Positions 35,723-54,422 of a stretch of 64,000 nt of DNA are shown piece by piece. Source of the stretch: Cloacibacterium caeni (lineage in GTDB: Bacteria > Bacteroidota > Bacteroidia > Flavobacteriales > Weeksellaceae). The stretch is taken from NCBI RefSeq assembly GCF_907163105.1, contig NZ_OU015321.1:2185001-2249000 (forward strand), in the 5' to 3' direction. How positions within the stretch are numbered: position 1 is the stretch's first letter; each line of letters opens with the position of its first letter. The translations under genes and the position numbers were made by a program. The notes beneath the pieces were generated by a model that worked only from the letters and a program-made list of their open reading frames with translations, searched no databases and was not told the origin of the DNA.

Positions 35723-35744
35723 AGCCACCCTTTTAGCCACCCTT
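35723..35744. repeat. Left copy of the sub-terminal 22-bp repeat
   Basis: Two AGCCACCCTT units separated by TT, identical to 54401-54422 and in the same orientation. It lies 29 bases upstream of the integrase gene. Probably arm-type binding sites for the integrase or its directionality factor (inference). Confidence 0.75.
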
Positions 35745-35773
35745 TACTATTTTTTATTAAATTAAATTTCACA

Positions 35774-36997: not shown

Positions 36998-37000
36998 AGT

Positions 37001-37080
37001 TATTGCATATTGCAATATGCAATAACGCTAATTTGTAATTCAAAATTTTTTATTAATATTGCATATCGCAATATGCAATA
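37001..37080. promoter_or_regulatory. Two 24-bp palindromic operators around a promoter
   Basis: A perfect 24-bp palindrome with half-site TATTGCATATTG lies at 37001-37024, and a second copy, one base different, lies at 37057-37080, 56 bp away start to start. Between and into the second copy are TTTG (37032-37035) and TAATATTG (37054-37061), a promoter with 18-base spacing. The second copy ends just before ATG 37082. The arrangement is typical of autorepression by the antitoxin. Confidence 0.8.
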
Positions 37081-37081
37081 T

Positions 37082-37603: not shown

Positions 37604-38282
37604 TAAGGCTATAAATATAGGAGTTGTTGCGGAAGTAGCGGAAGGTTTACAACAATATAGGGAGCAAGTAGTGTTCGTCGGTGGAGCTGTTATCAGTCTT
37701 TATACAGATGACCCAGCAGCTGACGAAATACGTCCCACGAAAGACATTGATTTTACAATTAATATCGTTAATGTAGGAGAATTTCACAAAACAATCGAGG
37801 AATTGGGAAAATTAGGTTTTCATCCAGACCCTTATGGAACATCTATTTGCAGTTACACATACAAAAAATATCCAGTAGATATAATTCCTGCCGAAGACAA
37901 CGCCTTTGGTTCAACCAATCGCTGGTATAAAATAGGTTTTGAAGACTTATGGAAAGTGAAAGCAAAAAATCAGGAAATTTACATCTTATCAGCACCTTGT
38001 TTTCTTGCAACAAAGTTTGAAGCATTCAATAGTAGGGGAAAAGATTACAGAACCAGCCATGATATTGAGGACATTATCTACATCATTGATAACAGAATCA
38101 GCATTGTAGATGAAATAGCAAAGTGCGATGAGAGAATTTTAGAATTTATTAAATCTGAATTGCAAAAAATCATTGATAAAGGTCTTTTAGAAGAACTCTT
38201 GCAAACACATATACACCCATTGATTATTGATGAAAGGATTGAAATTGTAAAAGAAAAAATCAACAGCATTATGAATGCCTGA
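37596..38282 (+). CDS. Nucleotidyltransferase, AbiEii-like toxin candidate
   Basis: A 228-residue protein with a minimal nucleotidyltransferase core: VVFVGGAVISLY (GG at 29-30), acidic pair D50 and D52 in TKDIDFTI, and a third acidic position in YPVDIIPAED. This is the pattern of PF08843-type (AbiEii/AbiGii) toxins. The only usable start is TTG 37596, which overlaps the antitoxin gene by 8 bases and implies translational coupling. A role in element maintenance or phage defence is an inference from family and position. Confidence 0.7.
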   Translation: MYNKAINIGVVAEVAEGLQQYREQVVFVGGAVISLYTDDPAADEIRPTKDIDFTINIVNVGEFHKTIEELGKLGFHPDPYGTSICSYTYKKYPVDIIPAEDNAFGSTNRWYKIGFEDLWKVKAKNQEIYILSAPCFLATKFEAFNSRGKDYRTSHDIEDIIYIIDNRISIVDEIAKCDERILEFIKSELQKIIDKGLLEELLQTHIHPLIIDERIEIVKEKINSIMNA

Positions 38283-38357
38283 AAATATTGACGATGGATA
38301 GTTCTTGTATTTTAATCAAAAAACAACACTCTTTATTTTTGAATCAAGTAAAAAAAC

Positions 38358-38404
38358 GTTAAACTTTGTTAAAGTAGAAGTATTTTAGTTAAAATTTGTT
38401 AAAA
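38358..38404. repeat. Two 17-bp direct repeats 30 bp apart
   Basis: GTTAAACTTTGTTAAAG (38358-38374) and GTTAAAATTTGTTAAAA (38388-38404). They lie in the gene-free 38283-38583 stretch, ahead of the decamer array. Confidence 0.6.
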
Positions 38405-38425
38405 CATAAGATTTATTGAAAAGAC

Positions 38426-38506
38426 TAATCTGGATTAATTTAGATTAATCTGGATTGCAAAAAAATTATTCTGGACTAATTTGGATTAATTTAGACTGTT
38501 CTGGAC
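38426..38506. repeat. Seven decamer repeats in near-helical phase (iteron-like)
   Basis: Units TAATCTGGAT, TAATTTAGAT, TAATCTGGAT start at 38426, 38436, 38446; after an 11-base gap, TATTCTGGAC, TAATTTGGAT, TAATTTAGAC, TGTTCTGGAC start at 38467, 38477, 38487, 38497. Each unit presents the same face of the helix. The array lies 77 bases upstream of the HTH gene and the replication genes, so origin iterons or Xis-type binding sites are both possible. Confidence 0.75.
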
Positions 38507-38583
38507 GAATCACAACTATTTGATTTTCAATAATTAAGTTGATATTATTGCATTTGAATTTAAAATAATTAAAATACAATCAA

Positions 38584-38862
38584 ATGTCAGTACAACTTTA
38601 TTCCCACACCAAAGCAGATTTGGAAAAAGCGGTTGAAATTATTCTAAAAAAAGCAACCGACTTCACATTACCCGTTAAAAAAGCAGAAGAACAACCCGAA
38701 GATTTAATTTCTCAAATCGAAGCCACAAAATTTCTGCACATTTCTGTTCCGACCATTATTGACTGGCGGAAAAATAAGAGTCTGCCTCATTACAATTTTA
38801 ATGGGCGATACTACTATTCTAAAAAGGAACTTTTGGAATACGGAAAAAACCGAAGAATGTAA
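38584..38862 (+). CDS. Helix-turn-helix protein, excisionase-like
   Basis: A 92-residue protein. The first 45 residues are helical; residues about 46-90 form a MerR/Xis-type winged helix (ISQIEATKFLHISVPTIIDW and NFNGRYYYSKKELLEYG). Small proteins of this kind lie between the integrase and replication genes in many Bacteroidota elements, acting as excision factors or regulators. The decamer array just upstream is a plausible binding site. Confidence 0.72.
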   Translation: MSVQLYSHTKADLEKAVEIILKKATDFTLPVKKAEEQPEDLISQIEATKFLHISVPTIIDWRKNKSLPHYNFNGRYYYSKKELLEYGKNRRM

Positions 38863-38923
38863 CCTCTGTTCGAGCATTACAATTTCTATTGTTTAACAAT
38901 TTCGTATTAAAATCATTCTTAAA

Positions 38924-40162
38924 ATGAACAAAAAAATTCCCTATTTACGAGTAGGCACAACATACTACAAAACCATAGAAAAACCATTAATTTCAGGTGA
39001 TAAAATTTCCATTTTGTTTCGATGGAATCGGGAAACCATTATCAGCGACTGTGGAAAAAATTATCTTTCACAAATTCCAAAATACGATGGCTTTTGTTGT
39101 ATTCCAAGTCATCTGAATTATGAAAAAATAATCGAAGGGTTTTACAATATGTACAATGAAATCCCGCATCAACCGATTGGAGAAAGTCTAAATTCCGATG
39201 CTCTCAAAGAAAAAATTCAGTTTTCGCTGAACTTTATGGAACATATTTTCGGAGAACAGCTTGAGTTGGGTTTAGATTACATCAAAATCTTACTTGAAAA
39301 ACCTACCCAAATGCTTCCGATTTTATGTTTGGTAAGTAAAGAACGTTCTACAGGAAAGTCTACCTTTATTAAATGGCTCAAATCCATTTTCGGGTTGAAT
39401 ATGACTTACATTAAAGGAGATTCTTTCAGCAGTCAATTCAATTCGGATTGGGCTTCAATGCTCATTGTAGCTATTGATGAAGTATTCTTTGACAAGAAAG
39501 AAATTACAGAAAGATTAAAATACCTTTCCACAACCGATAAAGATAAGAAAGAAGCGAAAGGAAAAGATCGTGAGGAAGTTGAATTTTTTGGAAAATTCAT
39601 TCTTTGTTCCAACAATGAAGACAATTTTATTCAGATTGATGAAGAAGAAATTCGGTTCTGGATTATCAAAGTTAAATCTATAAAAACAGAGAATACTGAA
39701 TTCCTTCAAAACCTAATTAAAGAAATTCCCTATTTCCTTCGCTATCTGATTCAAAGATCGTTCTGTAGCCAGAAACAAACCCGAATGTGGTTTACTGATT
39801 CTGAGATAAGAACAAAGGCGTTACAAAAATTGGTTTGGAAAAACAATAACAAACTTGAATCAAAAATTATTGAGCTCTTGTATGAGTTTTTTGAGAGTAC
39901 CGAAGAAAATGAAATCCAAGTCATTCCGCAGGATATTTTGAATATGCTCAACCGAATGTTTAAAAATCAATATTGGACAATCAATGATGTGAGGAAAATC
40001 CTAAAAGAAATATGGAAACTTGAACCACAGAACAATTCTTTGGCTTATATCAAATACGATATTGATTACAGTGGAAATTTTTATCTAAATAATAAAACTG
40101 GTCGCTATTTCACGATAAAAAGAGATTTTATTCTTCAAAAATTTGATGAAATGATGAATTAA
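38924..40162 (+). CDS. SF3-like helicase/primase-helicase family protein
   Basis: A 412-residue putative replicative helicase. P-loop SKERSTGKST is at about 137-146, Walker B LIVAIDEV at 180-187, a sensor-1-like FILCSNN at 225-231 and a possible arginine finger in EEIRFW (R244), an arrangement of superfamily 3 helicases. The N-terminal 100 residues are unassigned, and the C-terminal part has a winged-helix look. With the Toprim primase downstream it probably replicates the element after excision. Confidence 0.78.
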   Translation: MNKKIPYLRVGTTYYKTIEKPLISGDKISILFRWNRETIISDCGKNYLSQIPKYDGFCCIPSHLNYEKIIEGFYNMYNEIPHQPIGESLNSDALKEKIQFSLNFMEHIFGEQLELGLDYIKILLEKPTQMLPILCLVSKERSTGKSTFIKWLKSIFGLNMTYIKGDSFSSQFNSDWASMLIVAIDEVFFDKKEITERLKYLSTTDKDKKEAKGKDREEVEFFGKFILCSNNEDNFIQIDEEEIRFWIIKVKSIKTENTEFLQNLIKEIPYFLRYLIQRSFCSQKQTRMWFTDSEIRTKALQKLVWKNNNKLESKIIELLYEFFESTEENEIQVIPQDILNMLNRMFKNQYWTINDVRKILKEIWKLEPQNNSLAYIKYDIDYSGNFYLNNKTGRYFTIKRDFILQKFDEMMN

Positions 40163-40350
40163 TTGATAATGAAAAGAAAATCAATAACTTACTATTCATC
40201 AAAAGCCTCATCAAATTTTAAAACCTTCATTTTTGATGAAAGACTGATGAACATAAATTTTAATGTTTGATGAAATGATGATACTTTGATGAAAGCGTAA
40301 TATTTTAAATTACAGCAACTTAAAAATATTCCTCATCAATTCATCAAAAT
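40142..40350. repeat. Cluster of TGATGAA/TTCATCA motifs between helicase and primase genes
   Basis: TTTGATGAA (or its complement TTCATCAAA) and close variants occur about eight times in 210 bases in both orientations, starting near 40142, 40195, 40208, 40229, 40265, 40284 and 40332. The first copy overlaps the end of the helicase gene. Candidate replication-origin or operator region; no gene is seen in 40163-40384. Confidence 0.6.
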
Positions 40351-40384
40351 ATTTCCAAAAAATAAACCATAATATTTTACAACT

Positions 40385-41329
40385 ATGAACTGCAACCAAT
40401 TCAACTCTATAAAGTTGGAAGAAGTCCTCGTTTCAGTCGGACACCATCCAACAAAACAAAATGAAAAAGAAGCTTGGTATCTCAATCCTTTTTCCACAGA
40501 AACCCAAGCCTCTTTTAAAATTAATAAAAATCTGAATTATTGGTATTTACACTCCGAAGGAATTGGCGGAAACAATGTCGATTTTATGAAAAAATATCTA
40601 AACGCATCAGTAAAAGAAGTTTTAGAATGGGCAGAAAAGCAAAATTTTTCTTCTTTTCAACAGCAGAATGTTATTCATTCAATAAATTCAAAACCAAATT
40701 ATCAAATCACCGAAATCAAAAAACTCCAAAACGAACATCTTAAAAGCTATCTTCATCAAAGAGGACTTTCAAAAGTAGTATATCCGTTAGTTAAAGAAAT
40801 TCATTTTGCCATTGGAGAGAAAAAACTTTATGCTATAGGTTTTGAAAATTTTTCTGGAGGTTGGGAACTTAGAAATTCATTTTACAAAGGTTCATTACAG
40901 AAGAAAGATATTTCAATTGTAAATCTCAATAATGAAAATCAAAATGAAACAGGGAAAAGAATTGTCGTTTTTGAAGGATTTATGGATGCTTTGTCTTTTG
41001 TGGAGATGAAACCATTCTTCATTGGCGATTTGTTGGTAATGAATTCTATTTCATTGTTGAATAGAACCAAAGAACATTTAAAAATTTATTCCGAAATCCA
41101 TTTGTTTTTAGACAATGACAAAGCAGGAGAAACTTGTAAAAATTCAATTCTGAAATCATTTCCCGAAGCCAAAAATCATTCTGAAATTTATGCTCTTCAT
41201 AAAGATTTGAACGACTATTTACAATTCAAAAACAACACTGAAATCGAAAAAAAACAGCAGATAGACTTGAAATCAAAACAAGAACAAGAGGAAAGTGAAA
41301 TATATCAAACTTACAAAAGAAAACGCTGA
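40385..41329 (+). CDS. Toprim domain DNA primase
   Basis: A 314-residue primase-like protein. The N-terminus (about 1-90) resembles a CHC2-type DNA-binding region (PFSTETQASFKINKNLNYW, YLHSEGIGGNNVDFM) although the zinc ligands are not obvious. The Toprim domain follows, with E197 in VVFEGFMDALS and the DxD pair D243/D245 in LFLDNDKAG. The C-terminus is a charged Lys/Gln/Glu tail. It should prime replication with the helicase encoded upstream. Confidence 0.85.
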   Translation: MNCNQFNSIKLEEVLVSVGHHPTKQNEKEAWYLNPFSTETQASFKINKNLNYWYLHSEGIGGNNVDFMKKYLNASVKEVLEWAEKQNFSSFQQQNVIHSINSKPNYQITEIKKLQNEHLKSYLHQRGLSKVVYPLVKEIHFAIGEKKLYAIGFENFSGGWELRNSFYKGSLQKKDISIVNLNNENQNETGKRIVVFEGFMDALSFVEMKPFFIGDLLVMNSISLLNRTKEHLKIYSEIHLFLDNDKAGETCKNSILKSFPEAKNHSEIYALHKDLNDYLQFKNNTEIEKKQQIDLKSKQEQEESEIYQTYKRKR

Positions 41330-41440
41330 TTATGTGGGTTACCTATTTTTATCAACTATCGGCGAAAGTTAGGAGCTCATTCGCAACTTTGAAGGTCGAT
41401 ACTCTCCCAACAAAGTTTCTTCTTCGCTCTGCGAGGCTTT

Positions 41441-41555
41441 AACCTGCGTAAAATAGTACAAGGTTCAAGCTTGTTAACCTGTAAAGGTCACTTTACAACC
41501 TGTATGAAATAGATACAGGTTATTAGGTAACCTGAGTAAAAAAGACACAGGTTAC
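41441..41555. other. Hairpin cluster upstream of the relaxase gene, candidate oriT
   Basis: Four inverted repeats built on AACCTG/CAGGTT lie in 115 bases. They are AACCT...AGGTT (41441-41465); TGTAAAG-GTCA-CTTTACA (41480-41497); AACCTGTAT-N7-ATACAGGTT (41497-41521, perfect 9-bp stem); and GTAACCTG-N13-CAGGTTAC (41527-41555). The relaxase gene begins 23 bases later. The region 41330-41440 before it has no gene but holds ACTTTG/CAAAGT arms. Position and structure fit an origin of transfer. Confidence 0.65.
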
Positions 41556-41577
41556 ATCATTATCAAATTTAATAAAA

Positions 41578-42720
41578 ATGAAGACATCAATCAATTTCAA
41601 AGCGTCAAAATCTGATTCCGAAATTCATAATTTCAGAAAGAAATCTTTTGACTACATCCGCAAAGATTTAACTCATAAAAATGAATATTGGATGGAACAA
41701 AAAATTGCAGACCAAATCCAAAAAATAGAATCCTACTGCAAAGAAAAATCAGGCAGAAAATTACAGAAAAATGCAATGCCAGTTCGGGAAGCCGTTGTGG
41801 TAATTAAAGAAAATACAACGATGCAAGACTTGCATAACCTATCAAAAAGATTGGAAGAAGAATTAAAGATTCGAATTTTTCAAATTGCAATTCATAAAGA
41901 TGAAGGACATTTTGACAAAGAAACCAAAGAATGGAAGCCAAATTATCATGCTCATTTGGTGGCAGATTGGCAGGATCTGGAAACGGGAAAAACACTTAAG
42001 CATCAATCGTTTCATTATTCCAAAATGCAGGATTTGGCGGCGGAATGTTTGGAAATGGAGAGAGGTATTTCGGGTTCGTTAACAAGATTAGAAGCAGTTG
42101 AATTTAAAATCAAGAAAAAAGAAGAAGATTTGAAAATTTTGGAAGAACGATACAGCCAAATGCAACAAGAGATGGAATCTAAAAATTCAGAGGAGTTTAT
42201 CGTAAAAGAATCTGACTTTCTAGGTTTTCAGAAAATAAAAACAGATAAAACCATTGAAAACTACGAAAAGGCAATCAAAACGAATAATATTCAACTTCTC
42301 AAAAACAAAACAGAACTGGAATCCAAAGAAAAACAAATTGTAGAATTAAAAACCAACATTGAAAGTCTTAAAAAAGAGGTTTCCTTCTTCAAAAGCAAAA
42401 ACTCCGCTCTGTTAACCAATAAAACTGTTTTTGCTGTTGAAAAGAAAAAATACTTGGATTCGGTAGAAAACACACTTAAAAAAGGGATTCTACAGGAAAG
42501 TATAAAAATTCCGAATCTGCAAAATCTAAATGATGCTGAACGAAAAGATAAAATGATTGAGCTATTGGAAAAAACATCAAAGGAAAATAACATTCCTTTT
42601 TCTGCTTTTGAGGAGGTTTTTAAGGATTCAAATAAAACAGCTTCCTTTTTGAATTTGTTGGGCGGTAGAAAAAATCATGAGCAACTTGAAGAAAAACAAA
42701 TTGTGAAATTTCGCCGTTAA
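41578..42720 (+). CDS. MobV-like (Pre/Mob) relaxase
   Basis: A 380-residue mobilisation protein. The N-terminus has the Pre/Mob motif I element EIHNFR (residues 16-20), and the metal-binding motif HKDEGH...NYHAHLV (H106, E109, H124, H126) matches the HxDE...HxH pattern of MobV relaxases, with an insertion between the two halves. The C-terminal half (about 175-290) is a long coiled coil. It should nick the element at oriT for transfer by a helper conjugation system. No coupling protein or mating-pair genes are in the element. Confidence 0.8.
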   Translation: MKTSINFKASKSDSEIHNFRKKSFDYIRKDLTHKNEYWMEQKIADQIQKIESYCKEKSGRKLQKNAMPVREAVVVIKENTTMQDLHNLSKRLEEELKIRIFQIAIHKDEGHFDKETKEWKPNYHAHLVADWQDLETGKTLKHQSFHYSKMQDLAAECLEMERGISGSLTRLEAVEFKIKKKEEDLKILEERYSQMQQEMESKNSEEFIVKESDFLGFQKIKTDKTIENYEKAIKTNNIQLLKNKTELESKEKQIVELKTNIESLKKEVSFFKSKNSALLTNKTVFAVEKKKYLDSVENTLKKGILQESIKIPNLQNLNDAERKDKMIELLEKTSKENNIPFSAFEEVFKDSNKTASFLNLLGGRKNHEQLEEKQIVKFRR

Positions 42721-42837
42721 GTATTAAAGGACTATCATCATTTTTATTGCTCTATATTTCCCGTAAATTTATTTCACTGATAATCAGAAAATTAAAAAGC
42801 GCTTTCGTATTTAGTACAAAATTTACTGTGATTCTTT

Positions 42838-42885
42838 ATTGTTTATTAAAAGATATATTTTACATTTGTACAGTAATAGTACAAA
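42838..42885 (+). promoter_or_regulatory. Promoter with overlapping GTAC operator for the R-M genes
   Basis: ATTG (42838-42841) and an exact TACATTTG (42861-42868) are 19 bases apart. The palindrome TTTGTAC-N7-GTACAAA (42865-42885) covers the end of the -7 box and the expected start of transcription, so a bound protein would block it. TAGTACAAAA also occurs at 42812-42821. Confidence 0.65.
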
Positions 42886-42892
42886 AAATATT

Positions 42893-43480
42893 ATGCAAAA
42901 AATTTACAAAATAAATGATGTCGCTAAAATCCGTTCTGGTATGGTAGTTACCAAAACCACCAACAGAAACGAAGAAAAGTTAACCAATACCTTTGTAAGA
43001 TTATTGACAACTTCCGATTTTGATGACGATGGAAACCTGCACAGAGAAATTCAACCCAATGCAATGTACAAACCTATCTTTGAAAAGAACTATCTAAAAG
43101 CTGGTGAAATTCTCTTCAACGCAAAAGGAAGAAGGTTTTTTGCCATGGAATTCAAAGAAGAATTTCCACATTGTATTGCTGGTTCTACTTTTTTGGTTTT
43201 AACCATTACTTCAGATGAGATTCTCCCCAATTATTTACTTTGGTATCTCAATCATGAGGAGACTTTAAAAGTATTTAATGCTAAAATTTACACCCAAACT
43301 TTACCCTCTATTTCCATAAAAGAGTTAGCAGATTTAGAAATCGCAATTCCCGATTTGGAAACCCAAAATAACATAGTACATTTAGACCAATTAAAAAATA
43401 AAAAACTAAAAATCAGAAAACAATTAATAGAATTAGAAAACCAATACATCAATACTTTAACCTATAAAAAAATAAAATAA
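42893..43480 (+). CDS. Half-size type I specificity subunit (single-TRD HsdS-like)
   Basis: A 195-residue protein with one target-recognition domain (about 1-150) and one C-terminal helical conserved region (LETQNNIVHLDQLKNKKLK and on to IELENQYIN). Normal HsdS has two of each and about 400 residues. It precedes hsdM with a one-base overlap (TAATG), so it is made together with the methylase. It could act as a homodimer, compete with the full HsdS encoded at 46829, or be a regulator. Start ATG 42893 follows the promoter and operator. Confidence 0.72.
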   Translation: MQKIYKINDVAKIRSGMVVTKTTNRNEEKLTNTFVRLLTTSDFDDDGNLHREIQPNAMYKPIFEKNYLKAGEILFNAKGRRFFAMEFKEEFPHCIAGSTFLVLTITSDEILPNYLLWYLNHEETLKVFNAKIYTQTLPSISIKELADLEIAIPDLETQNNIVHLDQLKNKKLKIRKQLIELENQYINTLTYKKIK

Positions 43481-44997
43481 TGAGCCATAAAATCACTCAA
43501 AAAGACGTAAACAACATTGTTTGGAAAGCGTGTGATACTTTCCGTGGAATTATAGACCCTTCGCAATACAAAGACTACATTCTTACCATGCTTTTCTTAA
43601 AATATGTAACTGATGTTTACAACGAGAAAAAAGCAGAATACGAAGAAAAATACGCAGGAAACCAAGAACGTGTACAGCGTGCTTTGGAGCGTGAACGTTT
43701 TGTAGTTCCCCAAGTTTCTAGCTTCGATTATCTCTACGAAAACAGGAACAGCCCGAAAATTGGTGAAATGATTAACCATGCATTGGCAGAATTAGAAGAA
43801 GCCAACCGTGAAAAATTAGGTGGGCATGATGGTTCTAATATTTTTAGAAATATAGATTTCAATTCTTCTAATTTAGGCGATGCCAAAGACAAAAGCACCA
43901 GATTAAGAAACTTACTAAATGATTTCAAATCTTTAGACCTTTCTCAATCTCATTTAGAGAACAACGATGTGATTGGCGGAGCTTACGAGTTTTTGATTGC
44001 CAACTTTGCTTCGGATTCTGGTAAAAAAGCTGGGGAATTTTTTACTCCAGCCGAAGTTTCTACGCTTTTAGCAAAACTCACCAAATCTGCTCCAGGTTCT
44101 AGAATCTACGACCCAACTTGTGGCTCTGGTTCTTTGCTCATAAAAGCAGGTAGAGAAGTTGGAAACAATAATTTTTCACTTTTTGGACAAGAAGCTAACG
44201 GTAGCACTTGGGCTTTATCTGTAATGAATATGTATTTGCATGGGTACGACAATGCTATTATTAGATGGGGAGATACTTTGCGAAATCCAAAACACAAAGA
44301 AGGAGATAAACTGATGCTGTTTGACACGGTAGTTGCCAATCCTCCATTTTCTTTAGACAAATGGGGAGCCGAAGAATTAGAAAACGACAGTTACAACCGT
44401 TTTTGGAGAGGAATGCCCCCAAAATCCAAAGGAGATTGGGCGTTTATTTCTCACATGATAGAATCATTAAATGCTCACGGAAAAGCGGGCGTAGTAGTTC
44501 CTCATGGAGTTCTGTTTCGGGGTGCTGCGGAAGGCAGAATACGCACCGAAATTTTGAACGAAGATATTTTGGAAGCGGTAGTAGGCTTACCATCAAACCT
44601 CTTTTTCGGAACAGGAATTCCTGCGGCGATTATCATCTTTAACCGTGAGAAAAAAAATAAAGAAAAAGTATTGTTTATAGATGCCAGCAAAGATTTCGTA
44701 GCGGGTAAAAACCAAAATTCTTTAGGCGAAAACCATATCAACCATATTGTAGATGTTTTTACCGATTTTCATGACAACCAGAAAGATGCAGGCGTTATAG
44801 AAGACAAGTTTGCCTATATTGCTACGTTAGAAGAGATAAAAGAAAACGATTACAACTTGAATATCCCAAGATATGTAGATACTTACGAAGAAGAAGCCGA
44901 AATAGACCTTACAGAAGTACAGCAAAAAATTGAGCAACTGCAAAGCGAATTGGCAGAAGTACAAAAACAAATGGACGAATATCTAAAATTGTTTTAA
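43480..44997 (+). CDS. hsdM: Type I R-M DNA methyltransferase subunit HsdM
   Basis: A 505-residue N6-adenine methylase subunit. The N-terminal HsdM_N domain (about 1-150) is followed by SDSGKKAGEFFTPAEVSTLL, the SAM-binding motif I YDPTCGSGSLL (about 209-219) and the catalytic NPPF in VVANPPFSLDKW; the C-terminus is a coiled coil (LTEVQQKIEQLQSELAEVQK) that should contact HsdS. The gene is intact. With either HsdS it can modify the host DNA at the recognition site. Confidence 0.96.
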   Translation: MSHKITQKDVNNIVWKACDTFRGIIDPSQYKDYILTMLFLKYVTDVYNEKKAEYEEKYAGNQERVQRALERERFVVPQVSSFDYLYENRNSPKIGEMINHALAELEEANREKLGGHDGSNIFRNIDFNSSNLGDAKDKSTRLRNLLNDFKSLDLSQSHLENNDVIGGAYEFLIANFASDSGKKAGEFFTPAEVSTLLAKLTKSAPGSRIYDPTCGSGSLLIKAGREVGNNNFSLFGQEANGSTWALSVMNMYLHGYDNAIIRWGDTLRNPKHKEGDKLMLFDTVVANPPFSLDKWGAEELENDSYNRFWRGMPPKSKGDWAFISHMIESLNAHGKAGVVVPHGVLFRGAAEGRIRTEILNEDILEAVVGLPSNLFFGTGIPAAIIIFNREKKNKEKVLFIDASKDFVAGKNQNSLGENHINHIVDVFTDFHDNQKDAGVIEDKFAYIATLEEIKENDYNLNIPRYVDTYEEEAEIDLTEVQQKIEQLQSELAEVQKQMDEYLKLF

Positions 44998-45010
44998 AAT
45001 TAAAAACTCT

Positions 45011-45080
45011 ATGTACACAAAACGAAAATTCATGTACAGAGCAAACAAACAATGTAAACAAAAACGCAATTTTGTGTACT
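45011..45080. promoter_or_regulatory. GTACACAAAA inverted repeat and related copies
   Basis: GTACACAAAA (45013-45022) and TTTTGTGTAC (45070-45079) form a perfect 10-bp inverted repeat. Between them are ATGTACAGAG (45032-45041) and ATGTAAACAAAAACG (45052-45066). The motif is related to the GTAC operator upstream of the half-HsdS gene. It lies between hsdM and the first AlbA_2 gene. Confidence 0.55.
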
Positions 45081-45117
45081 TTTAAAAATTAACTCAAAAA
45101 ATTAAACCTTTTTACAA

Positions 45118-46583
45118 ATGAATGAGACGGATTTAAAAAAGCTTCTTGAAGAATTAGTGCAACAACCTCAAGAATCTGAGTGGATAGAGTTTAAGCATAA
45201 TTTTCATTCTCCAGAAGAAATTGGCGAGCGAATTTCTGCATTGTCAAATAGTGCTTGCATCCTAAATAAAGAATTTGGTTATTTAGTTTTCGGTATAGAA
45301 AATAATACTCACAAAATTTTAGGCACTACTTTCAAGGCAAAATCCCACAAAGCAAAGGGAAATGAAGAGCTTGAAATGTGGTTGGCTACAAGGCTTAATC
45401 CTCGAATTGATTTTCAGATTTATGAGTTTGATTACGATAATAAACATATTTCTTTTTTTGTAATACCTGCCGCCAAAACACAACCTGTAGAGTTTTTACA
45501 TCAAGCGTACATAAGAGTAGGCAGTTTTACTAAAAAATTAAATGAGTTTGCTGATAAACAAGCAAAAATTTGGAGAAATACTGGCAAACCATACGAGTTA
45601 GAAATTGCACAAGACGGATTAAGCATTTCAGATGTTATTAAATTATTAAGCACGGAAACCTATTTCGATCTTTTAAAAATTCCTTATCCATCAGACCAAA
45701 AAGGCGTAATTGAAAAGTTGATGGATGACAATATAATTGTTAAAATTCACTCGAAGTATGCTATTACTAATTTAGGAGCTTTATTATTTGCGAAAGAATT
45801 AAAAGATTTCGAATCTGTTGAGCGAAAGTCTGTAAGAGTTATTGTTTACAAAGGAACCAATAAAGTAGAAACCGAAAGAGAGCAAATAGGCGCTAAAGGA
45901 TATGCACTCGGCTTTGAAGGTTTGGTAACTTGGATTAATGGACAATTGCCTGCAAATGAAGAAATTGGAAAAGCACTTAGAACCGAATCCAGAATGTATC
46001 CAGAAATAGCCATTCGTGAATTAGTCGGAAACTTATTAATCCATCAAGATCTTAATAGCAAAGGCTTTCCAATGATTGAAATATTTAAAGACCGTATCGA
46101 ATTTACAAACCCAGGAGAACCCATTGTAAATCCAGACCGTTTTATTGATGCGTATAATTCTAGAAACGATAAATTAGCAGACTTAATGCGAAGAATGGGT
46201 TTCTGCGAAGAATGGGTTTCTGCGAAGAAAAAGGCTCTGGTATGGATAAAGTTTTTTTCTACAACGAATTGTATCAATTGCCACCTATTAGCGTATTGGT
46301 GGTAGAACACAAAACACGCGTAACTATTTATTCCTACAAAGCTCTAAATGATTTGGACAAGAAAGAAAAAATAAGAGCTTGTTATCAGCACGCTTGTTTA
46401 AAATACGTTTCTAACGACAAAATGACCAATCAATCTTTGCGTGATCGTTTCAAAATAGAAGATCAAAATGCAGCTATTGCATCCCGAATCATTAAAGATG
46501 CTTTAGAAGAAGGCGTGGTAAAACTAGAAGACCCTGAAAGCAAATCACGGAAGTATGCCAAATACATACCTTATTGGGCATAA
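45118..46583 (+). pseudogene. Schlafen AlbA_2-domain ATP-binding protein, frameshifted by a 17-bp tandem duplication
   Basis: The first frame (45118-46305) gives an AlbA_2 domain (about 1-150, with SEWIEFKHNF and FGYLVFGIEN), then an HATPase_c_4-type region (RELVGNLLIHQD, RIEFTNPGEP), and then goes out of frame after MRRMGFCEE. The proper continuation EKGSGMDKVFFYNELYQLPP and a C-terminal winged helix lie in another frame (46212-46583). The cause is a 17-bp direct duplication at 46188-46221. Removing one copy restores a 482-residue protein. The G-box GSG is lost in the frameshifted product. The second AlbA_2 gene at 48740 is intact. Confidence 0.88.
46188..46227. repeat. 17-bp tandem duplication with a 6-bp third part-copy
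   Basis: GCGAAGAATGGGTTTCT at 46188-46204 and 46205-46221, followed by GCGAAG at 46222-46227. The ancestral sequence had GCGAAG on both sides of 11 bases, so slippage between these 6-mers can create or remove the extra copy. Confidence 0.92.
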
Positions 46584-46584
46584 T

Positions 46585-46780
46585 CTTATTTGATGGTTAT
46601 TTGATAAATAGCGATTACAAAAACATAAATCACTGATAATGAACCGTTTTTTATTTGATGCTTATTTGATTTTTCTGCTGGTTCTGATGGATTCTTATTT
46701 GATGACTAATTGATGAAAAGACATATCAAAAATATAAACACCTGAAAACTAAATACATTTTATTTGATGCTTATTTGATA
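46585..46780. repeat. Four paired TTATTTGAT repeats
   Basis: The nonamer TTATTTGAT occurs as pairs, usually 11 bp apart, starting at about 46586, 46651, 46694 (second half TAATTGAT) and 46760. The set begins immediately after the first AlbA_2 gene stop and ends 48 bases before hsdS. No gene is seen in 46584-46828. Confidence 0.75.
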
Positions 46781-46828
46781 AACACTCAACTATTCTAATT
46801 TTTAGAAAAGTTCAAAACCTAAAAAACA

Positions 46829-48037
46829 ATGAAACAAAACACTACATACAAACAAACAGAACTCGGACTTATCCCAGAAGATTGGGAAGTGAAGAAGTTG
46901 GGGAAAGTAGGAGAAATTGATAAAAAAAGTTTAAACTCTAATACTGATAAAGAATATGAATTTGATTATATTTCATTGTCGGATGTTGATTCTGACCAAT
47001 TTTCAATAAAAACAAGTAAGCAGAAATTTAAAAATGCACCATCAAGAGCAAGAAGAATTGTAAAAAAAGGAGATGTACTTTTATCTACTGTTAGACCAAA
47101 CCTAGAAGGCTTTACAATCATTAGAGATGAAGTAAAAGATTTAATTGCTTCTACTGGTTTTGCAGTAATTACATCCAAAAATGAACTTCATAATGAATAT
47201 TTATTTAATTTTTTATTTAGTAATATTATTAAAAGACAATTTCATAAATTATTAGTTGGTTCTAATTACCCAGCAATCAATTCAAGTGATGTTAAAAACC
47301 TCAAAATCCCACTTCCACCATTATTAGAGCAAAAGAAAATAGCAGATTGCCTTTCTACTTGGGACTGTGCCATAGAAAAACAAAGCCAATTAATAAACGC
47401 ACTTACCCAACGTAAAAAAGCCCTTATGCAACAACTCCTTACTGGCAAAAAACGTTTGCCTCGGTTTGAAGGAAAATGGAATCTAAATTCTATTAATGAT
47501 TTGTTTATTTTTAAAAATGGTAAAGCACATGAAAATGATATTGATGAAAATGGAAAATACATTTTGGTAAATTCAAAGTTTATATCAACCGACGGAGAAA
47601 TTTCAAAAAAAACCAATAGTAATTTAGCTCCATTGGAAGTTAATGATTTGGTTTTTGTAATGAGCGATGTTCCTAATGGAAAAGCTTTGGCAAAGTTTTG
47701 TTTAATTAAAGAAGATAATTTATATACATTAAATCAAAGGATTGGTTTATTAAAAATAAAAAAAGGAAATCCTATTTTTATGTATTATCTTCTCAATAGA
47801 AATTCGTATTTTTTAATGTTTGATAATGGAGTTGGACAGACAAATTTAAGAAAAGATGATATACTAGACTGCCCTTTAAATATCCCTTCCCTTTCAGAAC
47901 AAACCGCCATTGCAGAAATATTAGCTACCGCAGATAGAGAACTGCAACTGCAAAAAGAAAAACTTGCCCAATTGCAACAACAGAAAAAAGGCTTAATGCA
48001 GGTTTTGCTTACTGGAAAGAAGAGATTAATCAATTAA
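46829..48037 (+). CDS. hsdS: Type I R-M specificity subunit HsdS
   Basis: A 402-residue two-TRD specificity subunit that sets the bipartite recognition site. It starts with the typical ELGLIPEDWEVKKLG. TRD1 (about 15-165) is followed by conserved region 1 (LLEQKKIADCLSTWDCAIEK... to LLTGKKRL), TRD2 (about 215-350) and a matching C-terminal conserved region (LSEQTAIAEILATADRELQL... to LLTGKKRLIN). The repeated LLTGKKRL ends mark the pseudo-symmetry. The gene is intact. Confidence 0.93.
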   Translation: MKQNTTYKQTELGLIPEDWEVKKLGKVGEIDKKSLNSNTDKEYEFDYISLSDVDSDQFSIKTSKQKFKNAPSRARRIVKKGDVLLSTVRPNLEGFTIIRDEVKDLIASTGFAVITSKNELHNEYLFNFLFSNIIKRQFHKLLVGSNYPAINSSDVKNLKIPLPPLLEQKKIADCLSTWDCAIEKQSQLINALTQRKKALMQQLLTGKKRLPRFEGKWNLNSINDLFIFKNGKAHENDIDENGKYILVNSKFISTDGEISKKTNSNLAPLEVNDLVFVMSDVPNGKALAKFCLIKEDNLYTLNQRIGLLKIKKGNPIFMYYLLNRNSYFLMFDNGVGQTNLRKDDILDCPLNIPSLSEQTAIAEILATADRELQLQKEKLAQLQQQKKGLMQVLLTGKKRLIN

Positions 48038-48057
48038 CAACAAAAACACAAAATAGT

Positions 48058-48678
48058 ATGGGAAAAGAATTAATTAAAATTTCGTTAACAGAATTTATGA
48101 ACTTCGTAAATAAATCTGGTAGTGCAAAATCTACCGTGGTTTAAAATTCTAAAAACAAAAGAGACGAAGAATATGAGCATTACAAAGATTATTGGCTGAA
48201 ATTAAGAGAAAAATTAAAATCTGTACATAAAAAAGCTCAAACTCATGATGATTTAAGAGCATTATTAGATGATATTCATTCTGATAAAAAAGTAAATTAT
48301 AAAGCTGCAATAGAAGGATATATAAAATTTTGGAAAAAAAGAAAAATAGAATGGGTAAATCCTCCAAGAAAAACTTGGACAGTTGGAGATGTAAAAATAG
48401 AACTAAACCCAGAGCTTGGACTTGTAGTTAGAGATAAGATATATATAATAAAGCTTTTTACTACTGCAAATACCGATATTAACAAAATGCACGCAGATTT
48501 AATCCTTAACCTAATGGAAAAAGAACTTCGTGAAAAAGTTTCGGGAGATGAAGTTGTTTTTGGTGTATTAGATGTAAAAAGAGGTAAATTATTTGAAAAT
48601 AAAAATCAAGACACCTCTTTATATCCTCTCTTAAATGGAGAAGCAAAAAGCTTTGAAACGATTTGGAAAGCTATTTAA
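48058..48678 (+). pseudogene. Unknown protein interrupted by one in-frame TAA
   Basis: One frame stays open for 207 codons from ATG 48058 to TAA 48676-48678 except for a TAA at codon 29 (48142-48144), between STVV and NSKNKRDEEYEHYKDYW. TAA is one base from AAA, CAA or GAA. I do not recognise the protein. The N-terminal 28 residues (ELIKISLTEFMNFVNKSGSA) look like a small helical lead; the rest has a basic helical middle and an alpha/beta C-terminus. It lies between hsdS and the second AlbA_2 gene, so it is probably an accessory part of the R-M island. Reinitiation downstream is possible. Confidence 0.72.
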
Positions 48679-48690
48679 AGCCATCTCAAA

Positions 48691-48719
48691 CGGACTTACA
48701 ACGGACTTGGTTCGGAGTT
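48691..48719. repeat. Three CGGACTT repeats at 11-bp spacing
   Basis: CGGACTT at 48691-48697 and 48702-48708, CGGAGTT at 48713-48719, one helical turn apart, 21 bases upstream of the second AlbA_2 gene. Confidence 0.6.
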
Positions 48720-48739
48720 AATTAGAAAAATAATAAAAT

Positions 48740-50398
48740 ATGACAACACAAGAATTAAACGACATATTAAATAGACTTTGTGGCTTAGAAGCAGAAAATG
48801 AAATTGTTGAATTTAAAGAGGCGAAATCTAATTACGATTTTACCAAATTAGGCAAATATTTTTCTGCTCTTAGTAATGAGGCCAATCTAAAAGGTAAACC
48901 TTTTGGGTGGCTTGTTTTTGGCATAGAAGATAAAAAACATAACATAGTTGGTTCTATTTACAGAAGCAAGAGGAAAGATTTAGACAGCCTAAAAGGTGAA
49001 ATGGCCAATAAAACCACTAACCGAATTTCTTTTATAGACATTCACGAAGTAAATTTACCAGAAGGACGTGTAGTTATGTTTCAAATTCCCGCTGCTCCAA
49101 AAGGAATTCCAACTGCATTTGACGGGCATTACTACTCACGTGATGGCGAAGAGCTAGTTCCTTTAAATATTGAAAAAATCGAACGGATAAGAGCGCAAGC
49201 AACAAAAGAAGATTGGAGTGCTGCAATTGTCCCAGCTGCAACATTAGAGGATTTAGATGAAGATGCAATTGCTTTGGCTAGAAAAAATTTTAAAAACAAA
49301 TTCCCAGATAAAGCAGATGAAGTAGATCTTTGGGATAACATTACTTTTTTAAATAAAGCTAAAGTTACTAGCAAGGGAAAAATTACGAGAACCGCTTTAA
49401 TTCTTTTGGGGAAAGATGAATCAGAGCATTTGCTTAATCCAGCAGATGCAAAAATTCGATGGAAATTAATGGATGAATTAAATAATGACATCGACTATGA
49501 AATTTTTGGTATTCCTCTTATTTTATCCGTAGAGAAAGTATTTGCAAAAATTAGAAATATCAAGTATCGATATATGCAAGAGGGAACAATTTTTCCAACT
49601 GAAGTTGCAAAATATGAACCTTTCTCTATTCGAGAAGCCATCAACAATTGCATTGCTCACCAGGACTATACAAAAAATGCGAGAATAAATGTTATTGAAA
49701 TGCCAGATCAATTGATTTTTACCAATCAAGGTTCTTTTATTCCAGGAAATGTAGAAAAAGTTGTTATTGAAGATTCCCCAGAAGAATTTTATCGAAATCG
49801 CTTTTTAGCTACAGCAATGTTTAATCTCAAAATGGTTGATACCGCTGGTGGCGGAATCAAGAAAATTTATAATTTTCAAAGAGCTAGATTTTTTCCTCTC
49901 CCTGATTACGATTTAGCAAATGATAAAGTAAAAATGGTACTTTCTGGAAAAATCCTCGATTTGGAATATGCTCGTTTATTAGCGCAGAACAAGGATTTAA
50001 CATTGGAAGAAATTATGATGTTGGATAAAGTGCAAAAAAAACTACCACTTACTGATTTTGAAGAGAAACATTTGAAAAGTAAAAAACTAATAGAGGGCAG
50101 AAAACCAAATTTCTTCATTAGTTTAAAAGTAGCACAAAAAACTGGACAAAAGGCAGATTACACTAAAAATAAAGGTTTTGACAAACAGTATTATTTAGAT
50201 TTAATAATAAAAGCAATTAAAGAACATAAAGATCTAACGAGAAAAGATGTAGATGATTTATTATGGACAAAGCTACCTGATTGGATGACTGAAAAACAAA
50301 AGAAAATAAAAATAAATCATCTATTGTCAGAATTACGTAGAAGTGAAGTAATAGAAAACAAAGGAACTTTTGGCAAACCAAAATGGGAGCTAAAATAA
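48740..50398 (+). CDS. Schlafen AlbA_2-domain ATP-binding protein with winged helix
   Basis: A 552-residue protein. Domains in order: AlbA_2 (about 1-140; ENEIVEFKEAKSNYDF, FGWLVFGIED), a linker, an HATPase_c_4-type ATP-binding region (about 300-385; FSIREAINNCIAHQDY, VDTAGGGIKKIYNF with the GGG loop intact), and C-terminal DNA-binding helices (to 552; LTRKDVDDLLW, INHLLSELRRSEVIENKG). Proteins of this type often accompany type I R-M genes; their job is unknown, with transcription control or defence both possible. It is a distant relative of the broken gene at 45118 and is bracketed by two sets of short repeats. Confidence 0.85.
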   Translation: MTTQELNDILNRLCGLEAENEIVEFKEAKSNYDFTKLGKYFSALSNEANLKGKPFGWLVFGIEDKKHNIVGSIYRSKRKDLDSLKGEMANKTTNRISFIDIHEVNLPEGRVVMFQIPAAPKGIPTAFDGHYYSRDGEELVPLNIEKIERIRAQATKEDWSAAIVPAATLEDLDEDAIALARKNFKNKFPDKADEVDLWDNITFLNKAKVTSKGKITRTALILLGKDESEHLLNPADAKIRWKLMDELNNDIDYEIFGIPLILSVEKVFAKIRNIKYRYMQEGTIFPTEVAKYEPFSIREAINNCIAHQDYTKNARINVIEMPDQLIFTNQGSFIPGNVEKVVIEDSPEEFYRNRFLATAMFNLKMVDTAGGGIKKIYNFQRARFFPLPDYDLANDKVKMVLSGKILDLEYARLLAQNKDLTLEEIMMLDKVQKKLPLTDFEEKHLKSKKLIEGRKPNFFISLKVAQKTGQKADYTKNKGFDKQYYLDLIIKAIKEHKDLTRKDVDDLLWTKLPDWMTEKQKKIKINHLLSELRRSEVIENKGTFGKPKWELK

Positions 50399-50406
50399 TA
50401 CAATTT

Positions 50407-50448
50407 GTTAGAGTAACTGTTAGAGGTTTTGTTAGAGAACTGTTAGAG
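50407..50448. repeat. Four GTTAGAG repeats at 11-12-bp spacing
   Basis: GTTAGAG starts at 50407, 50419, 50431 and 50442, directly after the second AlbA_2 gene and 76 bases before hsdR. Spacing of about one helical turn suggests protein binding on one face. Confidence 0.75.
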
Positions 50449-50523
50449 ATTGCTTTTTATTAAATTGATTATCAAATGTTTATCTCTAATAAATTTAATA
50501 AATATTAAATAAAAATAATACAA

Positions 50524-53500
50524 ATGAGCCATTTCACCGAAGACAATACCGCACAAATCCCCGCCCTTAAATTGCTCATCAATTTAGGCTACCAATACCT
50601 TACGCCTTCCGAAGCATTGCAAATGCGTGAAGACAGAGAAAGCAATGTTTTGCTTACTTCTATTTTAAGGGAACAGCTAAAGAAAATAAATACCATAAAA
50701 ATTGGCTCTAAACAAGCAGACTTTTCCGATGCTAATATAGAACGTGCCATTCATTCGCTGAAAGACATTCCTTTAGCCGAAGGTTTGGTAAATGCAAGTA
50801 ACCGTGCGTATAACCTTTTGCGTTTTGGCAATGCTTTGGAACAATCTATTGATGGCGACAAAAAAAGCCATACCATTCAATACATTGATTGGGAAAAACC
50901 CGAAAATAATGTATTTCACATTACCGAAGAATTTTCCGTAATGCGTACTGGTAGAAAAGACACGTATCGCCCGGATTTGGTATTGTTTATCAACGGAATC
51001 CCTTTGTCTGTAATAGAATCTAAAAGTCCAACAATAAAAATACCGCTCAAAGAAGCCATTTCGCAACATACCCGCAACCAAATGGAAGACGGCATACAAA
51101 ATCTGTATGTCTATAGTCAGATTTTAGGTGCAATATCACTTACCGAAGCCAAATATGCTACCACCAATACCAAAGAAGAATTTTGGGCAGTTTGGAAAGA
51201 GAAAGACCAAAATTTTATAGACCAATTGCCAGAAATTATAAATGTCGATTTAACGAAAGAAACGGAAAGTAAAATTTTTTTTCAAAACGATTTTCGAGGA
51301 AATTTCGATTTTTTAAATTACAAAGAAAAATACGAAGTAGAAATTACCCCTACTTTACAAGATGTAATGCTTTATGGCTTATTTAGCAAAGAGCGTTTTT
51401 TAGAAATCATCAAAGATTTTATTTTGTTTGAGGGCGGCATTGTAAAAAAAGTAGCCCGCTTTCAACAGTATTTCTCCATCAATAAAATCATTAATAGAAT
51501 AAAACCCATACGAAACGGAAAACGTTTAGGCGGTGTAATTTGGCACACACAAGGAAGCGGTAAATCTTTAACTATGGCTATGTTAGCTAGAAAAGTAAAA
51601 GATACTGTGAAAAATCCACAAATTATTTTAGTAACCGACAGAGTAGATTTGGACAGGCAAATAACCACAACGCTTCAAAAAGTAGAAATAGAGGTAATAA
51701 ATGCCACATCTGGTAAACAATTAATACAATTATTAAAAGGAAATGGCGATTTTGTAACGACTAGCATTATCAATAAATTTCAGGCAGCGGTAAACGAATT
51801 GGCAAACAATCCGCTAGAAAGTCCCAATATTTTTGTTTTAATAGACGAAGCACACCGCACACAATATGGTGTTTTCAATGTAAATATGGAAAGAGTGTTA
51901 CCTAATGCTTGTTTTATTGTATTTACAGGAACTCCACTTATGAAATCTCAAAAAAGTACAGCCCAAAAATTTGGTGGAATTATTGATACTTATACCATCA
52001 ATGAAGCCGTTGCCGACAAAGCAATTGTTCCTATTTTATACGAAGGCAGATTTGCGGTACAAGATGTGAATCAAAATGCTTTGGATAGAGGTTTTGATAT
52101 CGTTGCAGAAGATTTAACCGAGTACAATAAGACAGAACTAAAAAAGAAAATGAACAATGCTGGTTTGATAAGTAAAACCGACCAAAATATTTATCAAACT
52201 GCTATGGATATAAGTCGCCATTTTGCTGGCAATTGGGGAAAAGACAACACAGGCGTTCATTCTGGCTTTAGAGGAATGGTGGTTTGTCCAGATAAATTAA
52301 CCGCTGTAAAATACAAGAAAGCTTTTGATTTAATTGGCAAAGTTTCTACAGAAGTGGTTATGTCCTCACCAGACCCTCGTGAAGGAAATAATGATGTTCA
52401 TAGCAGTGAAGCGAGTGAAGTGGTACAATATTACAATTTATTAAAAACAAAATACGGAAATGATATTGACAAATCTATTATTCAGCAATATGAAAATGGA
52501 GAAAGTATAGAATTACTCATTGTTATTGATAAACTATTAACAGGTTTTGATGTGCCACAAACCATCGTGATGTATTTGTGTAGAAAATTAAGAGAGCACT
52601 CATTATTACAAGCAATTGCAAGGGTAAATAGAGTTTATGCGGGTAAAGATTACGGTTTTATTATAGATTATGCTGGAATTATGCACGAACTAGAAGAAGC
52701 TATGGAAACCTATACTACAGACGAAGACCAAACAGAATTGATGGATTTGCAAAATACTTTAACCGATATATCACAAGAAATTGCAAAACTTCCACAAACG
52801 TATTCCGACTTAATAAATCTTTTTAAAACTTTAAAAAATAAAAATAATATTGATGAATACATCAATTATTTATCAGATATCGCATTGAGAGAAGAGTTTT
52901 ATGCAAAATTTAATCTATTTGCAAAAATTCTTAAAATGGCACTTTCTACGGTAACTTTTTATGATTATACGCCTACAGAAAGAATTGATTTATACAAAAA
53001 TGATTTAAAGAAATTTGCAGGAATTAGAGTTGCTGTGAACAATATATATGTGGACAATGTAAGTTTTGCACAGTACGAAAAACAACTTCAGAAATTACTA
53101 GACCAACACGTAATTACAGAAGAAATCATCAGACTTACCGAGCAAATAGATATACTGGACACCGAAACATTCAACGAAGAATTAGAAAAAGTAGTTGGCA
53201 ACAGAGCAAAAGCAGAAAAAATAGCTTCGGCAACCTCAAAGTATATCAACGAAAAAAGAGATACCGACCCTGTTTTGTTCAAAAAAACTATCCGAACTCA
53301 TTAAGCAAACCATTGCAGATATGAGAGCTGATAGACTTTCGGATTTAGAAGCTTTACAAAAACTAAAGGACATCAGAAATGAAGCTATCGGCACAAAAGC
53401 GAGTGATGTTCCTGAAACTCTGAACCAAAAAAAAAGAAACATTCCTATATTCAGATTTTTGCAAAATGAACAAGTAGAAAAATCCGAAGAAAGCACCTTG

Positions 53501-53677
53501 TTTTTAGATGAATTAATTGCTCAAAATGAAATTGTTGATTGGCACAAAAACACCGATATCCTCAATAGAATAGAACTTGATTTTGGAGATTATTTGATGG
53601 ATATCCAAGGATTTACTCTAGAAAAAGCAGATGAAATTACAAAAAAATGTATTGAAATTGCAATTGCAAATAAATAG
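50524..53677 (+). CDS. hsdR: Type I R-M restriction subunit HsdR, frameshifted at an A7 tract
   Basis: The restriction and translocation subunit. The first frame (50524-53304, 926 residues) has the N-terminal nuclease region (RPDLVLFINGIPLSVIESKS, with the PD...ExK pattern), Walker A WHTQGSGKSLTM, DEAH box VLIDEAHRTQYG and the helicase motif LLQAIARVNRVY. It stops at KKTIRTH. Dropping one A from the seven at 53281-53287 reads on as KKLSELIKQTIADMRADRLS into the frame that ends at 53677, giving 1050 residues, the normal length. The lost C-terminus is the part that binds the M/S core. This may be a mutation, a phase switch, transcriptional slippage, or a sequencing error. Confidence 0.9.
53281..53287 (+). 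other. A7 tract at the hsdR frame break
   Basis: Seven A in TTCAAAAAAACTATCC; six A would keep hsdR in frame. The tract is a natural site for replication or RNA polymerase slippage. Confidence 0.8.
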
Positions 53678-53681
53678 GAAT

Positions 53682-54389
53682 ATGCTACATTTTATAGAAT
53701 TTGGTTCAAAGAAAATAGAGTTTATCATAAAATACTCTACTAGAAAAACACTCGGAATTAAGGTTTCACCAGACAAAACTGTCCAAGTCTCTGTGCCTTT
53801 AGAAACCAACATGGAAGAAATAGAAAAATGGGTTTACAAAAAAACAAGATGGATTTTCAAGCAACAAAATTATTTTGATACGCTTGATTTATATGATACT
53901 AATTATGAAATGAAATCTGGTTATAGTGTATTTTATTTAGGAAGACAATATAAAATTAATATAAAAATCTCTAAAAAAGAAGAAGTTTCTTATTTAGGAA
54001 ATCAATTCCTAATTTTGGTAAAAAAGAAAGAAAACGCTTCTGTAATTTTTGAAAAATGGTGGAAAGAACGTGCGATACTTAAGATTTCAGAAATAGCACT
54101 TCCCATGATGAAAAAATTTGAAAAAAATCATCACATCCCTTCTAAAATTAATTTTCAAGAAATGCCGACACGCTGGGGAAGCTGCACCGTGAAAAATAAA
54201 TTAATTTTCAACCCTAGATTAATTCACGTTCCGAAACGCTGCATAGAATATGTTATCATGCACGAGCTTTGTCATCTAATTCACAAACATCATAATAAAG
54301 ATTTTTTTGAATTACTAACACTAAAAATGCCAGATTGGGAAAAGAGAAAAGAAAAATTGGATAAATACCGACAATCAAAAGAAATATAA
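53682..54389 (+). CDS. YgjP-like metallopeptidase domain protein (DUF45)
   Basis: A 235-residue protein of the M48-related YgjP/WLM family. The zinc site is HELCHLIHKHHNKDF (HExxH plus a third His), preceded by the family motif MPTRWGSCTVKNKLIFNPRL. Genes of this type often follow hsdR in type I systems; the role is unknown and might be processing or control of the nuclease. It starts 4 bases after the hsdR C-terminal frame ends. ATG 53682 is preferred to the earlier one at 53631, which overlaps hsdR. Confidence 0.88.
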   Translation: MLHFIEFGSKKIEFIIKYSTRKTLGIKVSPDKTVQVSVPLETNMEEIEKWVYKKTRWIFKQQNYFDTLDLYDTNYEMKSGYSVFYLGRQYKINIKISKKEEVSYLGNQFLILVKKKENASVIFEKWWKERAILKISEIALPMMKKFEKNHHIPSKINFQEMPTRWGSCTVKNKLIFNPRLIHVPKRCIEYVIMHELCHLIHKHHNKDFFELLTLKMPDWEKRKEKLDKYRQSKEI

Positions 54390-54400
54390 AACCACAAATA

Positions 54401-54422
54401 AGCCACCCTTTTAGCCACCCTT
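54401..54422. repeat. Right copy of the sub-terminal 22-bp repeat
   Basis: Two AGCCACCCTT units separated by TT, identical to 35723-35744 and in the same orientation, 43 bases inside attR. Confidence 0.75.

What the first reader, a model, noticed from the sequence alone, without database searches (positions are those of the whole stretch)
46188..46227. 17-bp tandem duplication acts as a possible on/off switch in an AlbA_2 gene
GCGAAGAATGGGTTTCT is present twice plus GCGAAG. One copy gives an intact 482-residue protein with the ATP-binding GSG loop and winged helix; two copies truncate it. The 6-bp microhomology makes loss or gain of one copy easy, so the state could be reversible.
Basis: seen in the sequence. 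Interest (0 to 1): 0.65.

Follow-up and report, generated by a model that had tools for sequence, protein, structure and literature searches.

The report
Broken Schlafen-type gene beside phased operators
A 17-base stutter really has split a defence-linked gene in two, most likely an ordinary recent knock-out rather than a built-in switch, but the gene family proves to carry its own addressed DNA-binding sites, set one helix turn apart, right behind each gene, and the stutter separates the protein from the part that should read them.

Summary
Observation confirmed: an exact 17-bp tandem duplication (46187-46229, 2.53 copies, 9-bp seed TGCGAAGAA) shifts the frame of an AlbA_2/Schlafen-GHKL-winged-helix gene inside a type I restriction-modification operon. 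Homologues show no insertion there; Flavobacterium sp. UMI-01 has an intact 482-aa protein at the same operon position. An evolved switch is not supported: the seed is absent from 37 homologues; near relatives are broken by unrelated lesions; HsdM shows 0/66 broken hits; a neighbouring gene also has an in-frame stop. Most likely a recent slippage knock-out of a costly gene, revertible in principle; reversion was not testable.

Unexpected: immediately after the stop codon, homologues carry tandem 9-mers with 11-bp period (58/87; 1.9% of control windows; no other period comparable), in the window four TTATTTGATGGTTATTTGAT-like pairs before hsdS, spaced in multiples of 11 bp. The 9-mer follows one recognition-helix residue (A: TT 10/10; Y: TG 16/16; K: AT 7/7; R: CT 5/5; S: TT or CT). 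The family most likely reads its own phased operators through its winged helix, which the duplication cuts off. This code was not found in the papers searched.

The parts
46187..46229 (+). 17-bp exact tandem duplication, 2.53 copies, with 9-bp seed TGCGAAGAA three times; frameshift
45118..46305 (+). 5' part of the AlbA_2 gene: AlbA_2/Schlafen domain and most of the GHKL domain; last ~30 residues out of frame
   Evidence: (PF04326 E=6.5e-20; PF13749 only positions 4-59 of 89)
46212..46583 (+). 3' part of the AlbA_2 gene in another frame: invariant EExGxGxDK loop and winged helix; 91% identical to Flavobacterium UMI-01
46586..46605 (+). operator pair 1 TTATTTGATGGTTATTTGAT, 2 nt after the stop codon
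46651..46670 (+). operator pair 2 TTATTTGATGCTTATTTGAT, 65 bp from pair 1
46695..46714 (+). operator pair 3, degenerate (TTATTTGATGACTAATTGAT), 44 bp from pair 2
46760..46779 (+). operator pair 4 TTATTTGATGCTTATTTGAT, 65 bp from pair 3 and 49 nt before the hsdS start
42839..43480 (+). half-size specificity-subunit-like gene (Methylase_S)
43480..44997 (+). hsdM
   Evidence: TIGR00497
46829..48037 (+). hsdS, next gene after the operator array
48061..48678 (+). operon gene with one in-frame TAA after codon 28 (second broken gene); intact 38%-identical relative in G115
48740..50398 (+). second, intact AlbA_2-GHKL gene (552 aa)
50406..50449 (+). tandem array of TGTTAGAG (11-12 bp period) directly behind the second AlbA_2 gene
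50524..53304 (+). hsdR

Best explanation
The array is a recent slipped-strand duplication seeded by a chance 9-bp repeat that arose from codon choice for RR and CEE. It knocks out a Schlafen(AlbA_2)-GHKL-winged-helix gene embedded between hsdM and hsdS. In intact relatives the protein most likely binds, through its C-terminal winged helix, helically phased tandem operators directly behind its own gene, and so controls the following gene(s) and perhaps itself. The duplication removes the conserved GSG loop and the winged helix from the Schlafen half, so the operators before hsdS should no longer be occupied by a full-length protein. Loss is probably favoured or tolerated because the intact protein is costly. 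Shown here: duplication, frameshift, uninterrupted homologues, the operator arrays, their phasing and their covariation with the recognition helix. Inferred: DNA binding, control of hsdS, cost, low-rate reversion.
For: No homologue examined has an insertion at this codon; the syntenic Flavobacterium operon holds the intact gene. The seed exists only here. Other independent breaks: G124 one T fewer in a T run, G064 without its first 147 codons, G515 frameshift, L022 and L035 nonsense; HsdM none broken among 66 hits; second AlbA_2 gene none with stops among 13. The downstream frame holds no further stop and low pN, so the lesion is recent. Operators: 58/87 against 1.9% control, period 11 only; residue-base covariation on 47 loci, concordant at every counted independent switch for Y/TG; spacing in multiples of 11 bp; in the 2.72-Mb genome the motif lies only here. 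TrlG of Photorhabdus, same Pfam domains, arrests growth and gives spontaneous nulls (PMC7554251).
Against: Only one genome of the species is held, so copy-number variation in a population is untested and a slow reversible state is not excluded. Some near-relative lesions are in homopolymers of draft genomes and could be sequencing errors. A third of homologues show no clear tandem within 150 nt. Binding was never measured, and the tree test has only 4-6 independent switches.
Confidence: 0.75

Rival explanations
1. Phase-variable on/off switch: gain and loss of one 17-bp copy toggles the full-length protein and so the control of hsdS.
For: Exact repeats with 26 bp of total homology, frame-changing unit, recent and otherwise unspoilt downstream frame; spontaneous reversible sequence duplications are a known phase-variation mechanism in pneumococcal capsule genes (PMC4243769).
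Against: Seed not conserved in homologues; only two copies; other relatives broken by unrelated lesions; second broken gene in the operon.
Confidence: 0.1
2. Functional split gene: the 395-aa Schlafen/GHKL part and a 123-aa winged-helix part started at ATG 46212 inside the repeat are both made and act separately.
For: The second ORF starts with an ATG inside the second copy and retains a conserved winged helix.
Against: The arrangement is unique to this genome; the start lies 94 nt inside the first ORF with no known initiation signal; the GHKL domain is cut in the middle.
Confidence: 0.06
3. Assembly or sequencing error; the genome really has one copy.
For: No reads available; everything else in the frame is intact.
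Against: One-contig genome; an exact 17-bp insertion with seed homology is typical of real slippage and not of usual read errors.
Confidence: 0.06
4. The phased repeats are not operators but part of a mobile cassette or an RNA element that merely travels with the gene.
For: They keep position and strand relative to the gene while neighbouring genes change.
Against: Their bases track one recognition-helix residue through repeated independent switches, some copies lie upstream of the gene, and spacing is in helical turns.
Confidence: 0.15

Closest known systems
Pneumococcal capsule genes switched by spontaneous sequence duplication (Waite et al. 2001, 2003, cited in PMC4243769)
   Same: Spontaneous tandem duplication inside an ORF causes an off state.
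   Different: Reversion and phase variation shown there; here neither is shown, and the gene belongs to a restriction-modification operon.
TrlG of Photorhabdus, Temperature Restricting Locus (PMC7554251)
   Same: Same two Pfam domains in the same order and near the same positions; loss-of-function mutants arise spontaneously; part of a small operon.
   Different: Proteobacterial, heat-induced growth arrest; the passages read report no operator array, and its flanks were not examined here.
RptR, regulator of type I restriction-modification islands (PMC12255303)
   Same: Repressor next to a type I system acting on direct repeats.
   Different: A small 9-kDa protein reading TAGCTA repeats upstream of its own gene; unrelated architecture and motif.
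Schlafen-GHKL-wHTH RNases listed as accessory effectors of BREX-type systems (PMC12839542)
   Same: Same described architecture (Schlafen RNase, minimal histidine kinase, wHTH) tied to defence loci.
   Different: Cited as suicidal RNase effectors; the passages read mention no operators. The RNase activity of this member is untested.
DIP2311 of Corynebacterium diphtheriae (PDB 3lmm)
   Same: Best structural match of the intact homologue's model over most of its length (E 2.3e-19).
   Different: 13% identity, uncharacterised.

Membership tests
Schlafen/AlbA_2-GHKL-wHTH family | AlbA_2 domain above Pfam cut-off | tested here: met
   PF04326 72.3 bits, cut-off 25.3; Foldseek to SLFN13/SLFN14 N-domains
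Schlafen/AlbA_2-GHKL-wHTH family | complete HATPase_c_4/GHKL domain and C-terminal winged helix in one chain | tested here: not met
   window gene is split; GHKL cut at profile position 59 of 89, winged helix in another frame; met by the intact homologue L013
Schlafen/AlbA_2-GHKL-wHTH family | nucleic-acid cleavage | not testable with these tools
   no assay
Simple-sequence contingency (phase-variable) locus | many repeat units of a frame-changing length | tested here: not met
   only 2.53 copies of a 17-bp unit; the unit length does change the frame
Simple-sequence contingency (phase-variable) locus | repeat tract kept in homologues | tested here: not met
   no repeat in homologues; offset-17 run <=7 bp in 37 of them
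Simple-sequence contingency (phase-variable) locus | mixed copy numbers in a population | not testable with these tools
   one genome, no reads; no other copy of this stretch in viral contigs
Type I restriction-modification operon | hsdM, hsdS and hsdR together | tested here: met
   same gene order in L013 apart from the extra second AlbA_2 gene and short gene
RptR-type regulation | small RptR protein and TAGCTA repeats | tested here: not met
   different protein architecture and different repeat

The most novel reading that the evidence does not exclude
AlbA_2/Schlafen-GHKL-winged-helix genes across several phyla and phages carry their own helically phased operator arrays directly behind the stop codon, read by a recognition-helix code in which one residue sets the bases; the Schlafen effector is held on these arrays as an ordered assembly that controls the defence genes behind it, and frameshifts such as this one release the Schlafen half from its DNA address.
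Probability: 0.3. Interest if true: 0.75.

Novelty: new variant of a known kind. Interest (0 to 1): 0.5.

Why it matters
The duplication itself is an ordinary way to lose a gene. The arrays matter more: they give a large, poorly understood family of defence-linked Schlafen-type proteins a directly testable DNA target, with a prediction of which bases each member should read, and a way to ask how these proteins are tied to restriction-modification and other defence operons.

Tried and rejected
Frame restoration by slippage in the T7 run downstream was considered and dropped: it would rejoin the frame but without the EEKGSGMDK loop. Dating by dN/dS failed because synonymous sites are saturated; one comparison there (G124 upstream part) was misaligned by a codon and is not used. 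The idea that the repeats are a promoter element was dropped because the TG class lacks TTTG. Loss of the N-terminal half (G064, perhaps G803, G890, G958, G853) was noted, but contig ends and alternative architectures were not separated.

Full report
1. The observation. The sequence at 46187-46229 is an exact 17-bp tandem repeat, 2.53 copies, the highest-scoring tandem array in the window. The array breaks one gene into ORF 45118-46305 (395 aa) and ORF 46212-46583 (123 aa) in another frame. In 464 kb of the same genome there is no other exact tandem duplication with a unit of 13 bp or more that splits one gene in this way.

2. What the gene is. The first part carries AlbA_2/Schlafen (PF04326) and a GHKL domain (PF13749) that stops at profile position 59 of 89. 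The second part carries the invariant CEExGxGxDK stretch and the C-terminal winged helix. It lies in a type I restriction-modification operon: half-size specificity gene, hsdM, this gene, hsdS, a short gene, a second AlbA_2 gene, hsdR. Flavobacterium sp. UMI-01 has the same order, without the short gene and the second AlbA_2 gene, around an intact 482-aa copy. A model of that protein (mean pLDDT 87.9) matches DIP2311 (3lmm), the N-domains of human Schlafens and histidine-kinase catalytic domains.

3. Is it a switch? None of the homologues aligned at this codon has an insertion there. The duplication needs a direct repeat at offset 17; the window allele has 9 bp, the other 37 homologues 2-7 bp. 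The seed is therefore a by-product of codon choice and is not kept. Near relatives are broken by other lesions: G124 (86% identical) has one T fewer in a T run some 50 bp downstream of the duplicated site, G064 has lost the first 147 codons, G515 has a frameshift near residue 79, L022 and L035 have nonsense codons. As a control, HsdM gave 66 hits in the same taxonomic family with no internal stop, and the second AlbA_2 gene 13 hits with none. Some of these lesions lie in homopolymers of draft genomes and may be errors. In the window itself the gene at 48061-48678 has an in-frame TAA, while a relative in G115 is open at that place. The 3' frame of the AlbA_2 gene holds no further stop and is as conserved as the 5' part, so the event is recent. 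Together this favours a recent loss. Photorhabdus TrlG, with the same two domains, arrests growth at 36 C and is lost by spontaneous mutation (PMC7554251), which gives a reason for such losses. Reversion by loss of one copy remains possible; the pneumococcal capsule genes show that such duplications can act as switches (PMC4243769).

4. Operators behind the gene. Two bases after the stop codon of the split gene begins TTATTTGATGGTTATTTGAT: two 9-mers with an 11-bp period. Four such pairs lie at 46586, 46651, 46695 and 46760, all before hsdS at 46829. The whole 2.72-Mb genome has no other good match. Among 87 homologues from genomes, viral contigs, plasmids and phages, 58 have a tandem 9-mer of period 11 within 150 nt of the stop; control windows have it in 1.9%, and no other period from 8 to 19 comes near. 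The homologues are related, so these are not 58 independent events. In a few the sites lie upstream instead (L049, L051) or on both sides (L050). Distances between successive pairs cluster on multiples of 11 bp: 56 of 64 within one base (some distances within longer arrays depend on how pairs were merged).

5. A recognition code. The bases at positions 4-5 of the 9-mer follow residue 446 (L013 numbering), near the start of the predicted recognition helix 443-458: A with TT in 10 of 10, Y with TG in 16 of 16, K with AT in 7 of 7, R with CT in 5 of 5, S with TT in 5 and CT in 3, Q with CT in 1; loci without a scorable pair were left out. On a tree built without the winged helix, all 4 independent switches to or from Y on well-supported branches go with TG; those for R/Q and CT agree or do not differ, none opposes. 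The numbers of switches are too small for a formal p below 0.05. Eight plasmid and phage loci were then fetched: seven show the 11-bp tandem, wholly or in part, and the class agrees in five (L134, L135, L136, L137, L139; L136 is identical in protein to L032), is mixed in L140 and unpredicted for Q in L138; L141 has none. L134-L138 also entered the table of 47 where they had a scorable pair.

6. The second AlbA_2 gene and its relatives have arrays of their own with another motif (GTTAGA-like, 11-12 bp period) directly behind the stop. Arrays behind the gene thus look like a general habit of these proteins.

7. Reading. The most economical account is that the winged helix binds the array behind its own gene and governs what follows, here hsdS; the Schlafen half may be the effector, as proposed for BREX-linked relatives (PMC12839542). 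The 17-bp duplication cuts the winged helix off. Binding and regulation are inferred, not shown.

8. Known or new. Reversible duplications, Schlafen-GHKL-wHTH proteins in defence loci and repressors of type I systems acting on direct repeats (RptR, PMC12255303) are all known. The phased arrays behind the gene and the one-residue code were not found in the open-access papers searched; preprints, among them one on bacterial Schlafens in phage defence, could not be read, so novelty is not certain.

Noticed in passing
window 35718-54422: Mobile island with integrase (35774), relaxase (41578) and matching ends AGCCACCCTTTTAGCCACCCTT near 35723 and 54401, next to a Leu-Gly-Leu tRNA cluster; the left and right flanks adjoin in G002 and G006, which lack it, and G005 carries the same end sequence at that place.
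   Followed up: partly
window 48061-48678: Operon gene of unknown family with a single in-frame TAA after codon 28; open relative in G115.
   Followed up: partly
window 50406-50449: TGTTAGAG array with 11-12 bp period directly behind the second AlbA_2 gene; relatives have similar arrays.
   Followed up: partly
window 37010-38282: Gene pair matching PADLOC candidate defence families PDC-M21A and PDC-M21B.
   Followed up: no
L129, L130, L132, L133: AlbA_2 homologues that seem to lack the N-terminal Schlafen half but keep GHKL and winged helix.
   Followed up: no
window 42839-43480: Half-size specificity-like gene before hsdM, also in Flavobacterium UMI-01.
   Followed up: no
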